39,983 bases of DNA from Thiohalomonas denitrificans. Its GTDB lineage: Bacteria > Pseudomonadota > Gammaproteobacteria > Thiohalomonadales > Thiohalomonadaceae. A program made the translations under genes and the position numbers. Positions 9,986 to 13,010 of this stretch are shown in pieces; the stretch's first letter is position 1; each line of letters opens with the position of its first letter. A model generated the notes under the pieces. The model searched no databases and was not told where the DNA came from. It worked only from the letters and a program-made list of their open reading frames with translations. The stretch covers positions 1-39,983 of the forward strand of contig NZ_JAENYR010000029.1 in assembly GCF_016841685.1 (NCBI RefSeq), in the 5' to 3' direction.

Positions 9986-10894
9986 TTAGCGCGCGGACCA
10001 ATACTGCACGCCTTCGGTGCGCAGGAAAAATTCCGCCTTAGCGCCCCGCAGCATGGCAAAGGTGGCGAGCAGGCCGGCCTCCGTGCAGGTCGCGGCGGCG
10101 GCAGTGACGGAGCGTGGCGCATCCTCGATCGGCCAGCCGGTGGCAGGGTTGAGGATATGGCCGTAGCGAATGCCGTTCGCAAGAAGGTAGCGGCGGGAAT
10201 CGCCGCTGGTGGCCAAGCCTCCATGCCGCAGCTCGAAACGGTGGATGCTTTCACTGCCTTCGGCCAAGGGTAGGGAGGAGGCCGGGTTCTCGACGCCAAC
10301 GAACCAGCCGCAGCCGTTGCGCCGAGGGGTGTTCACGTAGAGGTCGCCACCGTAGTTCACCAGTATGCTGGCATCGCTCTGCTCGGCGATCAGGCGCGCC
10401 GTGCGGTCGACCGCGTACTCCTTGCCGATACCGCCGAGGTCGATTTCCATACCGGACGGCACGGTGATCTTCGGTCGCCGCCAGATAATCTTGTGCCAGC
10501 CGATGAGCGGCAGGATGTTCGCCACTTCGTTCGTGGCGGGAATGCGGTCACTGCCATCGAAACGCCACACCCTTCGTAGCACACCCGACGTAATATCGAA
10601 CAGGCCTTCGCTCAACTCGTAACATTGATTCGCATAGTCGAGCAGGGCCGCAGTCTCTTCGTCGACTACCAAGGGCTGCCCGTCCGAGTGGTTGATCCGC
10701 TGTACGGCGCTGTCCTTCCGATAGCGACTGAATTTGTGCTCGATACGGGAGGCCTCGGCGTGTGCAATAGCGAGTAATCGCCGGGCCAGCCGTCGATCAT
10801 CAACCTCCATGAGGATTTCGCAAGGACTGGCCATGGCCTGGAAGCGGCCGAGCCAATGATCTTTGTTTCGGGTGAGGGAAGATGCTTCAGTCAT
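9986..10894 (-). CDS. apbE: FAD:protein FMN transferase ApbE
   Basis: Enzyme that attaches FMN covalently to Ser/Thr of client redox proteins using FAD and Mg2+. The 302-residue product shows ASPCEI, FSRYRKDSAVQRIN, GLFDITSGVLR, the core EIDLGGIGKEYAVDR, LVNYGGDLY, LATSGDSRRY and HILNPATGWPI. No signal peptide or lipobox is visible, unlike many periplasmic ApbE proteins, so its location is uncertain. In the C-terminal metal region typical members read ADALAT; here it is CTEAGLLAT, with Gly at the usual Asp position. It follows the DUF3570/DUF4266/TlpA genes on the same strand, but a terminator-like hairpin and a palindromic repeat lie between. The client protein is not evident. Confidence 0.92.
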   Translation of the reverse strand: MTEASSLTRNKDHWLGRFQAMASPCEILMEVDDRRLARRLLAIAHAEASRIEHKFSRYRKDSAVQRINHSDGQPLVVDEETAALLDYANQCYELSEGLFDITSGVLRRVWRFDGSDRIPATNEVANILPLIGWHKIIWRRPKITVPSGMEIDLGGIGKEYAVDRTARLIAEQSDASILVNYGGDLYVNTPRRNGCGWFVGVENPASSLPLAEGSESIHRFELRHGGLATSGDSRRYLLANGIRYGHILNPATGWPIEDAPRSVTAAAATCTEAGLLATFAMLRGAKAEFFLRTEGVQYWSAR

Positions 10895-10901
10895 AAGGGC
10901 A

Positions 10902-10998
10902 CTTCTATAAATTCGTCATTCCCGCGAAAGCGGGAATCCAGCCGTTTAATTTTACTGGGCTCCCGCTTTCGCGGGAGTGACGAAAAATGAATTTTTAG
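10902..10998 (-). repeat. 97-bp double-hairpin repeat, copy b
   Basis: Reverse-complement relative of 4085-4182, with both hairpins intact: ATTCCCGCGAAAGCGGGAAT at about 10918-10937 and CTCCCGCTTTCGCGGGAG at about 10960-10977. It starts 7 bases upstream of the apbE ATG, so it would form the 5' leader of an apbE transcript and could affect its translation. Confidence 0.82.
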
Positions 10999-11024
10999 AG
11001 GTTCCCATAAGCTGTGAAAGGTGA

Positions 11025-11046
11025 GGCGCGGCTAACGAGCCGCGCC
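11025..11046 (-). terminator. Strong hairpin after the DUF3570 gene
   Basis: GGCGCGGCT at 11025-11033, loop AACG, AGCCGCGCC at 11038-11046: a perfect 9-base GC-rich stem with a 4-base loop, starting 10 bases beyond the DUF3570 stop on the minus strand. The following minus-strand bases are TCACCTTTCACA, only weakly T-rich, so termination may be partial. It suggests apbE is expressed by read-through or its own promoter. Confidence 0.65.
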
Positions 11047-11056
11047 GTCGCCCGAG

Positions 11057-12292
11057 TTAGAACAGGAAGGAATAATTTGCCTGTAAGATGACCGCGTCAA
11101 CATCCTCGAATTGCCCGTCGTCATCTGACTGGGTCATGTATTCAAGGCGCACGCTGTATTCCTGTTTTTCGCTCGATGCAAAGCCATATTTCAGTCCGAG
11201 CGTGTTCGTCGTCATGTTACCGAGGCGATAATCGGCACTCGCATAGGTCGGAACGGCCCCTTCATCCAGTTTGAAATGGTAGAACTCGGCGGCGTTCTGC
11301 TTGTACCAGCGGACATGGGGTTGCAGATAGTGTCCGCCGCCCAGCTCGTGCCGATAACGCAGGTCCAGGGTATGGGAGCTGATATCCCAGTCGTCCCAGT
11401 AATAGCGGTAGGAGACGTCAGCCACATCTTCGGACAAATGATGCAGGGTTCGCCAAAAGATGGTCTGCCGGCTACGCTCGTCGGGACGATTCTCGTAGAG
11501 GTAGCCCGTCACGTTGCCTGTGTCGTCGGTGACACTGAGCAGCTTGTAGGGGTCACTAAGGTAGCCGTCATCAATGCCATAGGTGTAGTTGAACTGCATG
11601 AGCGTGCGCCGGTTCACGACCTGGGTCACACCCAGCAGAAGCTCGGACACGGTCTTGTCCTCGCTTGCGCTTTGCGTCTCCTTCACGTCGGGAAATTCCG
11701 GCATGGGGGTCAGCCCAACCGGTGCCCCACCCTCCGGTTCGATGGAGTCCTGACTGAAGGAGGCCCCTGCCGAGAGTGTGGTGTTGCGATTGTTGAAGTC
11801 GCGCGCCAGCGTCGCGGAAATCCCCGCGGACTGGTAATCGTGCTCGGTGGAGAAGTTGGCGGAGAAGATACCCTTGAGGCGTTCGCTCAAGGGTTTCTCC
11901 CATTCGCCGCTCAGTGCGATGCGGGTATCCCTGAACGTCGGGTCAAGCGGTGTCTCGCCGGGCTCCGCGGTGTAGGTGGAATTACCCGAAGGCGTGGTGA
12001 AGGTCTGCACCTCGTCCGTCGGAATCGCACCGTTTGGCGACGATCCGGTCAGCGTATCGACCACCAGGCGCACTCCGACGTACTCATCATCGCCTAAAGC
12101 CTTGCGCAAGCCGACCACCGGCTCGACTACGCTCACGCGATCACTGCCTTCCGAATAGAACAGCACCGCCGAATCAACTTCCCACTCCTCCTCGGATGCG
12201 GCATTCACTCCTTGTGAGGTGCCGGTCAGAAGCGAGCACGTCGCCAGCGCCAGCGCACCGCGAACCGATTTGGATTCTTTTTTCAGTTGCAT
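11057..12292 (-). CDS. DUF3570 outer membrane beta-barrel protein
   Basis: Protein of 411 residues with an N-terminal signal region (basic start, hydrophobic ALALATCSLLTG, cleavage near NAA) and a long series of alternating amphipathic strands ending in phenylalanine, the usual signature of barrels inserted by the Bam machinery. The stretch LVVDTLTGSSPNGA matches the conserved start of DUF3570. Function is unknown. Its start overlaps the DUF4266 lipoprotein gene by 10 bases, implying translational coupling; the TlpA-like gene is first in the operon and apbE follows. The grouping suggests a cell-envelope redox or modification role, which is an inference. Confidence 0.88.
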   Translation of the reverse strand: MQLKKESKSVRGALALATCSLLTGTSQGVNAASEEEWEVDSAVLFYSEGSDRVSVVEPVVGLRKALGDDEYVGVRLVVDTLTGSSPNGAIPTDEVQTFTTPSGNSTYTAEPGETPLDPTFRDTRIALSGEWEKPLSERLKGIFSANFSTEHDYQSAGISATLARDFNNRNTTLSAGASFSQDSIEPEGGAPVGLTPMPEFPDVKETQSASEDKTVSELLLGVTQVVNRRTLMQFNYTYGIDDGYLSDPYKLLSVTDDTGNVTGYLYENRPDERSRQTIFWRTLHHLSEDVADVSYRYYWDDWDISSHTLDLRYRHELGGGHYLQPHVRWYKQNAAEFYHFKLDEGAVPTYASADYRLGNMTTNTLGLKYGFASSEKQEYSVRLEYMTQSDDDGQFEDVDAVILQANYSFLF

Positions 12293-12504
12293 CCGCAGCC
12301 TCCACCGCCAACGGCCTGTCCACCGGACGATCCTTCTTTGCTGTAATAAATATGATCGTCCAGGTATTGATCAATCGGATACCCGTCAAGCTGCATCGCC
12401 CGTTTCGCCAGTAGATCCTTTTCCCAAGGCTGAACCGGTTCGAAGGCGCACCCGCCCTGAAGCAGGGCAAGAGCGAGTACCGTGCTCGTAATTCCTATGC
12501 GCAT
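12283..12504 (-). CDS. DUF4266 small lipoprotein with Gly/Cys C-terminus
   Basis: Predicted lipoprotein of 73 residues. The lipobox LQGGC places the lipidated Cys at 19, leaving a 55-residue mature part. It has VQPWEKDLLAKRAMQL, then DQYLDDHIYYSKEGSSGG, and ends in GGGGCGCN. The PWE-x-LAxxxM motif with HxYYSKE and the terminal Gly/Cys tail fits DUF4266, whose role is unknown. The CGC pair could bind metal, form a disulfide handled by the adjacent TlpA-like protein, or be a modified tail; none of this is shown. ATG 12504 follows GAGGA with good spacing. The gene overlaps the DUF3570 start by 10 bases. Confidence 0.86.
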   Translation of the reverse strand: MRIGITSTVLALALLQGGCAFEPVQPWEKDLLAKRAMQLDGYPIDQYLDDHIYYSKEGSSGGQAVGGGGCGCN

Positions 12505-12524
12505 GGCCAATTTCCTCTAACTAC

Positions 12525-13010
12525 TTAATTTTCCAAGACATCGCGGATGCCAGTCTCCAGTTCGCTTCTGTCTTTATCCCGAAAACCCACGTGCGACAGG
12601 CGTATTTCACCGTCACGATCGATCAAATAACTGCTGGGCATGCCCTTTACCCCAAAACGTTCCGCTGTCTCCCCCTTCGGGTCGTAAGCGACGGTAAACT
12701 GCGCCGGGTATTTGGCAAGGAACTGCTCGACCAGTTTTTGGTCCTTGTCCAGATTGACAGCGACGACTACCAGCCCCTGTTCGCCGTATCGCGTCTGCAA
12801 CTCGTTCATGAAGGGGAAGGACTTGCGGCATGGCGCACACCAGGAAGCCCAAAAATCCAGGTAGATCACTTTGCCGCGCAGCTGCTCCAGGCGGAGCTCC
12901 CCTCCCTCTACCGACCAGATTGCATCGGGTGCCGGAGCTGCAGGAGCTGCGGTGACAAAAAAAAGCGAGAGGAAAACGAGCGAGGCAGACCGGAGAATCG
13001 TGTTCTTCAT
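12525..13010 (-). CDS. TlpA-like periplasmic thioredoxin
   Basis: Exported thiol-disulfide oxidoreductase of 161 residues. The signal peptide has a hydrophobic core LVFLSLFFVTAAPAAPA. The thioredoxin fold carries the active site WCAPC (C58, C61), a FWASWCAPCRKSFPFMNEL helix, LVVVAVNLDKD and the cis-Pro loop KGMPSSYLID. This is the TlpA/ResA branch, which usually reduces specific periplasmic cysteine pairs, for example in apocytochromes or copper chaperones. GGAG precedes ATG 13010 with 6-base spacing. It is first in a minus-strand operon and only about 20 bases before the DUF4266 gene, so the Cys-rich tail of that lipoprotein is a plausible target. Confidence 0.9.
   Translation of the reverse strand: MKNTILRSASLVFLSLFFVTAAPAAPAPDAIWSVEGGELRLEQLRGKVIYLDFWASWCAPCRKSFPFMNELQTRYGEQGLVVVAVNLDKDQKLVEQFLAKYPAQFTVAYDPKGETAERFGVKGMPSSYLIDRDGEIRLSHVGFRDKDRSELETGIRDVLEN

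What the first reader, a model, noticed from the sequence alone, without database searches (positions are those of the whole stretch)
9986..13010. TlpA / DUF4266 lipoprotein / DUF3570 barrel / ApbE set as a candidate uncharacterised envelope system
Four minus-strand genes put together an exported thioredoxin, a tiny lipoprotein ending in GGGGCGCN, an outer membrane barrel and a flavin transferase. The first three are tightly linked, two by a 10-base overlap. The parts suggest that the lipoprotein's C-terminal cysteine pair is reduced, metal-loaded or modified and works with the barrel at the cell surface. A flavinylation client motif is not obvious in the set, so what ApbE modifies is open. 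I recall DUF3570 and DUF4266 occurring together but cannot verify how widely.
Basis: partly seen in the sequence, partly recalled or inferred. Interest (0 to 1): 0.68.

Follow-up and report, generated by a model that had tools for sequence, protein, structure and literature searches.

The report
Flavin-loaded outer-membrane barrel gene set
The four genes are one copy of a redox gene set first described in 2021, in which an enzyme glues a flavin onto an outer-membrane barrel, and what is new here is that this enzyme lacks an export signal and lacks a metal-binding residue that normal versions have, so the flavin is probably attached inside the cell before the barrel is exported.

Summary
In detail: TlpA, DUF4266, DUF3570 and ApbE lie together at 9986-13010 (-), in an order found in about 140 other loci. 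The set is not undescribed. Meheust et al. 2021 (PMC8238504) reported the same four families and showed that a DUF3570 is flavinylated by its ApbE. The window DUF3570 has D-T-L-T-G-S-S where 57/57 aligned relatives keep [ST]G[ASG][ST].

Not found in the literature searched: (1) DUF3570-linked ApbEs lack a signal peptide (109 of 113 loci scored; two of the other four are scoring artefacts), while other ApbEs in the same genomes have one. (2) The linked ApbEs form a separate clade in which the conserved metal-ligand Asp is Gly in 107/107. (3) The AlphaFold model (pLDDT 90) is a 16-strand barrel with the flavin site at its extracellular mouth. (4) Some relatives join the set to FTR1 iron permease, cupredoxin and two-component genes; DsbD is often adjacent. 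(5) The DUF4266 CGCN ending is protein-constrained.

Best model: DsbD/TlpA thiols pass electrons via DUF4266 to a surface flavin, perhaps reducing Fe(III). The relay and the acceptor are inferred.

The parts
12525..13010 (-). TlpA/ResA-like exported thioredoxin, WCAPC active site; nearest solved structure 3gl3 ('putative DsbE')
12283..12504 (-). DUF4266 small lipoprotein (ATG start 12504); two predicted helices and a disordered C-terminal tail
12286..12309 (-). codons of the GGGGCGCN tail of DUF4266, nearly invariant; kept in 16 of 17 loci where DUF3570 cannot start inside it
11057..12292 (-). DUF3570, signal peptide plus 16-strand outer-membrane beta-barrel, ApbE client family
   Evidence: PMC8238504
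12038..12058 (-). flavinylation slot D79-T-L-T-G-S-S85 of DUF3570 (acceptor Ser85 = 12038-12040), at the start of the long extracellular loop 2
   Evidence: motif definition in PMC12052999
9986..10894 (-). ApbE-family flavin transferase without signal peptide, DUF3570-linked clade
10073..10087 (-). ApbE active-site signature C270-T-E-A-G274: Gly replaces the metal-ligand/triad Asp (Vc Asp285, Ec Asp280); Cys270 is clade-typical
10898..11005 (-). palindromic REP/MITE-like insertion at the ApbE start codon, flanked by CTTATG repeats, absent in the same-genus genome G481

Best explanation
The genes encode a thiol-to-flavin electron relay across the outer membrane. Shown elsewhere: a DUF3570 protein is flavinylated by its cognate ApbE. 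Shown here by sequence and model: the window DUF3570 is a 16-strand barrel whose flavinylation slot lies at the extracellular mouth; its ApbE has no export signal, belongs to a separate clade and carries Gly in place of the metal-binding Asp; TlpA has a CxxC site; DUF4266 ends in a near-invariant CGCN. Inferred: the cytoplasmic ApbE puts FMN on Ser85 of the unfolded DUF3570 precursor; Sec and BAM then export and insert it. DsbD (elsewhere in this genome) reduces TlpA, TlpA reduces the CxC of the outer-membrane lipoprotein DUF4266, and its flexible tail passes electrons to the flavin at the barrel mouth, which reduces an external acceptor, perhaps Fe(III).
For: DUF3570 is an ApbE substrate, proven by co-expression in E. 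coli on protein purified from the insoluble pellet, and the four-gene cluster was described with a proposed DsbD electron source (PMC8238504). Slot [ST]G[ASG][ST] in 57/57 aligned barrels and in 106 of 109 loci with an adjacent signal-less ApbE; the other three keep a site at slot 2 or have [ST]GPS. Linked ApbEs lack hydrophobic N-termini, whereas TlpA and DUF4266 of the same loci and unlinked ApbEs of the same genomes have them. Linked and unlinked ApbEs separate with SH-aLRT 97.8. Model pLDDT 90.3; 16-strand porins and BamA as structural neighbours. The shortest extracellular loops are the most conserved segments. ApbE could not modify a fully folded designed target, which its authors took to mean an inaccessible motif (PMC10722498); this fits modification before folding. 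DsbD is adjacent in 17 loci and a cupredoxin-FTR1-OMP-two-component block in up to 14, including same-strand arrays L061 and L127.
Against: The window slot is TGSS, not TGAS. The ApbE clade lacks the triad Asp, so its activity on DUF3570 is not guaranteed; whether the tested C. luteolum ApbE is of this Gly type could not be checked. Neither DsbD nor FTR1 is beside the window set, and the window genome has no FTR1 by Pfam. No Fur-box enrichment upstream. No electron transfer has been measured in any such system that I found. The extracellular side is inferred from barrel topology, not shown. A related extended operon keeps DUF3570, DUF4266 and TlpA while mostly losing the slot glycine, so the barrel can do something without a flavin. 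The lack of a signal peptide was judged by a hydrophobicity scan, not by SignalP.
Confidence: 0.5

Rival explanations
1. DUF4266 and DUF3570 are a metal-handling pair: the CGCN tail binds Fe or Cu delivered through the barrel, TlpA only keeps the cysteines reduced, and flavin on the barrel serves to release or reduce the metal during uptake.
For: Linkage to FTR1 permease, cupredoxin, a 240-aa OMP-like protein and a sensor kinase in up to 14 loci; VIT1 linkage reported in 25 clusters. The CxC lies at the very C terminus with fixed spacing.
Against: Most loci, the window included, have no metal gene nearby; no Fur-box enrichment; DsbD linkage is as frequent as iron linkage.
Confidence: 0.25
2. 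The linked signal-less ApbE does not flavinylate the barrel. It is a changed enzyme acting on a cytosolic client, and the barrel is flavinylated by the second, lipoprotein ApbE of the genome or not at all.
For: Triad Asp replaced by Gly in 107/107; no signal peptide; in three genomes without DUF4266 the same ApbE type sits beside an EF-hand protein without signal peptide that carries [ST]GAS; the window genome has a second, lipobox-bearing ApbE.
Against: Adjacency of this ApbE clade to slot-bearing DUF3570 in 109 loci; the slot decays mainly in the extended operons, where the nearest ApbE is of the signal-peptide type; a cognate pair was shown active in C. luteolum.
Confidence: 0.2
3. DUF4266 is an assembly factor: its tail cysteines, kept reduced by TlpA, help fold or load the barrel, and the flavin-bearing barrel works alone as a pore or sensor.
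For: The start of DUF3570 lies inside the DUF4266 tail codons in about half of the loci (72 of 141), which suggests coupled synthesis; the tail is predicted disordered.
Against: No conserved cysteine pair in the barrel columns of A3 for the tail to act on; DUF4266 is kept equally in loci without the overlap.
Confidence: 0.15

Closest known systems
ApbE / DUF3570 / thioredoxin-like / DUF4266 'DsbD system' (Meheust et al. 2021, eLife, PMC8238504)
   Same: Same four protein families in one cluster; DUF3570 as flavinylation client; DUF4266 with C-terminal CxC; thioredoxin-like partner.
   Different: Window has one site with TGSS instead of two [ST]GA[ST]; DsbD not in the cluster; thioredoxin is Redoxin/AhpC-TSA (TlpA/ResA) rather than PF13899. 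The passages read do not mention the ApbE's missing signal peptide, its Asp-to-Gly change, the barrel topology or an FTR1 link of this system.
Cytosolic ApbE of Klebsiella pneumoniae acting on a soluble fumarate reductase (reviewed in PMC12052999)
   Same: ApbE without signal peptide.
   Different: Client is a cytosolic enzyme; here the linked client family is an exported outer-membrane barrel. Whether the Klebsiella enzyme has the Gly change was not checked.
MtrCAB-type outer-membrane electron conduits (from general knowledge, not tested here)
   Same: Works like: a barrel that carries electrons across the outer membrane.
   Different: No hemes; thiols and a covalent flavin would be the carriers. 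Not homologous on any evidence here.

Membership tests
[quoted passage not shown]
Meheust 2021 ApbE-DUF3570-thioredoxin-DUF4266 system | DUF4266 with C-terminal CxC | tested here: met
   GGGGCGCN
Meheust 2021 ApbE-DUF3570-thioredoxin-DUF4266 system | ApbE flavinylation motif in DUF3570 ([ST]GA[ST]) | tested here: inconclusive
   D-T-L-T-G-S-S, six of seven motif positions; TGSS recurs in at least four other loci of the set. Strict Ala not met; acceptor Ser kept
Meheust 2021 ApbE-DUF3570-thioredoxin-DUF4266 system | DsbD co-located (optional, not defining: 316 clusters reported without it) | tested here: not met
   DsbD found only on other contigs of the genome; adjacent in 17 relatives
Meheust 2021 ApbE-DUF3570-thioredoxin-DUF4266 system | DUF3570 actually carries covalent FMN | not testable with these tools
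   needs co-expression and in-gel fluorescence or mass spectrometry
ApbE (PF02424) | family profile above cut-off | tested here: met
   217 bits vs 25.6
ApbE, canonical metal-dependent FMN transferase | catalytic triad Ser-His-Asp (Vc S241-H257-D285; Lm FmnB S257-H273-D301) | tested here: not met
   S230 and H246 present with the same 16 and 28 spacings; Asp position is Gly274, as in 107/107 linked ApbEs; so filed as an ApbE homologue of a distinct clade, activity inferred
ApbE, canonical metal-dependent FMN transferase | N-terminal signal peptide/lipobox, typical of most bacterial ApbEs (cytosolic exceptions known) | tested here: not met
16-strand outer-membrane beta-barrel | signal sequence, 16 antiparallel strands, C-terminal aromatic strand, structural match to porins | tested here: met
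   (predicted model, not experiment)

The most novel reading that the evidence does not exclude
A distinct class of cytoplasmic flavin transferases, lacking the metal-ligand Asp of known ApbEs, pre-loads FMN onto outer-membrane barrel precursors before Sec export (and onto EF-hand proteins in some genomes). The barrel then forms a heme-free, thiol-fed electron outlet in which the CGCN tail of a lipoprotein feeds a flavin at the cell surface.
Probability: 0.3. Interest if true: 0.78.

Novelty: new member of a known kind. Interest (0 to 1): 0.52.

Why it matters
ApbEs are described as mostly periplasmic, metal-dependent enzymes; the cytosolic ones named in the review read here act on soluble fumarate reductases or are fused to them. 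If a signal-less, Asp-lacking clade modifies an outer-membrane protein before export, covalent flavins can be installed in the cytoplasm on proteins bound for the cell surface. It would also give a route for electrons out of Gram-negative cells without cytochromes, linked in some species to iron uptake genes. One co-expression experiment in laboratory E. coli would test the core claim.

Tried and rejected
First named-genome scan with a diverse DUF3570 alignment gave no usable pattern; replaced by a DUF4266 alignment. Tail conservation as a by-product of gene overlap: rejected, since 16 of 17 loci without possible overlap keep GGGCGCN with varied codons. Fur regulation: no enrichment of Fur-like boxes upstream of TlpA in 127 loci against shuffled controls. 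Sequence relatives of DUF3570 in the PDB: none at E up to 1. Loss of the ApbE signal peptide as an effect of the insertion in the window: rejected, since relatives without the insertion, including same-genus G481, also lack it. Apparent exceptions to the signal-less rule: L096 is an over-long ORF start, L227 carries both ApbE types, and L235 and L238 are extended-operon loci with a signal-bearing ApbE and SSAS in the slot. FTR1 in the window genome by Pfam: none. Bacteroidota and Chlorobium loci could not be sampled, so the tested C. luteolum ApbE was not typed as Asp or Gly.

Full report
1. Observation. Pfam gives ApbE (PF02424), DUF3570 (PF12094), DUF4266 (PF14086) and a Redoxin/AhpC-TSA thioredoxin with WCAPC. 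DUF4266 starts at ATG 12504 and ends GGGGCGCN; DUF3570 starts at 12292, inside the tail codons.

2. Prior knowledge. Only one paper in the library names DUF4266 or DUF3570: Meheust et al. 2021, PMC8238504. [quoted passage not shown] it shows that C. luteolum DUF3570 is flavinylated by its ApbE at two [ST]GA[ST] sites, and notes the CxC of DUF4266. The set is therefore known, its physiological function is not.

3. Conservation. DUF4266 occurs in 30 of 398 phylum genomes and in 11 of 39 near relatives, including the same-genus genome G481. Order TlpA-DUF4266-DUF3570, usually followed by ApbE, recurs in nearly all loci. 349 relatives were confirmed in named genomes, 80 kept, mostly Gammaproteobacteria; a scan of the phylum of G398 (the genome holding L112, titled Latescibacterota) gave 28 of 78 genomes with DUF4266, most with the same cluster. 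The DUF4266 tail is [x]GGGCGCN in 108 of 112 loci, with GCAC variants in a few distant ones. It stays so where no gene overlap is possible, so the protein is what is conserved.

4. Flavinylation slot. In an alignment of 57 barrels, position 83 is Gly in 57/57, position 85 is Ser/Thr in 57/57, position 84 is Ala 50, Ser 5, Gly 2. The window has D79-T-L-T-G-S-S85. Published mutagenesis summarised in PMC12052999 shows that Ala-to-Val at this motif position only halves flavinylation, so Ala-to-Ser is plausible but untested. Most loci here have one site; eight of 109 have two.

5. ApbE lacks an export signal. Of 113 unique loci scored with an ApbE beside DUF3570, 109 are signal-less; of the four others L096 is an over-long start, L227 has both types, and L235 and L238 are extended-operon loci with a signal-bearing ApbE. 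TlpA and DUF4266 of the same loci score as exported. Unlinked ApbEs of the same genomes mostly have clear signal peptides or lipoboxes, including the window genome's second ApbE. Linked and unlinked ApbEs separate in a quick tree at SH-aLRT 97.8, the unlinked rows being one side of a branch. This rests on a hydrophobicity scan of longest ORFs.

6. Active-site change. Window S230, H246 and G274 have the spacings 16 and 28 of the triads S241-H257-D285 (V. cholerae) and S257-H273-D301 (FmnB). G274 and T278 have the spacing of the E. coli metal ligands D280 and T284. The position is Gly in 107/107 linked ApbEs that could be aligned there, and Asp (24) or Glu (2) in 26 unlinked ones; Cys270 is present in 101 of 107 linked and 4 of 26 unlinked. 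Uniform replacement argues for changed but maintained chemistry rather than decay; activity is not shown.

7. The clade beyond DUF3570. The window ApbE gives a bimodal score distribution over 398 genomes: 22 at E <= 7e-48, the rest at 2e-32 or weaker. Seventeen of the 22 have DUF4266. The other five also have the signal-less, Gly-type signature (C..[AV]G), and in three of them the neighbour is a small EF-hand protein without signal peptide bearing [ST]GAS.xMPP. This is a candidate new client and fits a cytoplasmic site of action.

8. Structure. The window DUF3570 model has pLDDT 90.3 and 16 strands after a low-confidence signal region. Foldseek and VIA-align 2 match porins and BamA. With termini in the periplasm, as in those barrels, the slot is at the top of strand 3 and the start of the 39-residue loop 2, thus extracellular. 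Short extracellular loops 1, 3 and 6 are the most conserved segments. DUF4266 is predicted, at low confidence, as two helices and a disordered tail.

9. Neighbours. DsbD lies near the set, mostly adjacent, in 17 loci. A cupredoxin, FTR1-type permease (PF03239 confirmed for L124, E 6.9e-17; others joined by BLAST), 240-aa OMP-like protein and a two-component pair form a block in up to 14 loci, in three arrangements, including same-strand arrays L061 and L127. The window itself has none of these beside it. An extended operon (L032-L034, L038, L042, L046, L049, L051, L052, L235, L238) keeps DUF3570, DUF4266 and TlpA; nine of these carry a protein joined by BLAST to one with an HZS_alpha domain (PF18582 confirmed for L042), and the slot glycine is lost in eight of 11.

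10. Verdict. A member of a known kind whose ApbE belongs to a distinctive, apparently unreported subclass. The client assignment is strong, cytoplasmic pre-loading is likely but unproven, the thiol-to-flavin relay and any iron role are inferred.

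Noticed in passing
window 10898-11005: About 108-bp palindromic REP/MITE-like element inserted at the ApbE start codon, with CTTATG on both sides so that the ATG is kept; absent in same-genus G481. The half-element has 97 matches with up to 3 mismatches in the genome, none for the reversed control.
   Followed up: partly
L283 7867-8280, L286 6688-7023, L287 4140-4541: Small EF-hand proteins without signal peptide, carrying an N-terminal [ST]GAS.xMPP motif, next to the same Gly-type signal-less ApbE in genomes without DUF4266: possible new ApbE clients. 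The one paper holding the terms EF-hand, ApbE and flavinylation together is on another subject.
   Followed up: partly
L032-L034, L038, L042, L046, L049, L051, L052, L235, L238: Extended operon with DUF3570, DUF4266, TlpA, a large exported protein related to the hydrazine synthase alpha middle domain (PF18582), an SH3 protein and an OMP; flavinylation slot mostly SSAS or SNAS.
   Followed up: partly
L127 465-8992: Same-strand array TlpA-DUF4266-DUF3570-ApbE-DsbD-RR-HK-cupredoxin-FTR1-OMP in one gammaproteobacterial MAG, joining electron source and iron permease.
   Followed up: partly
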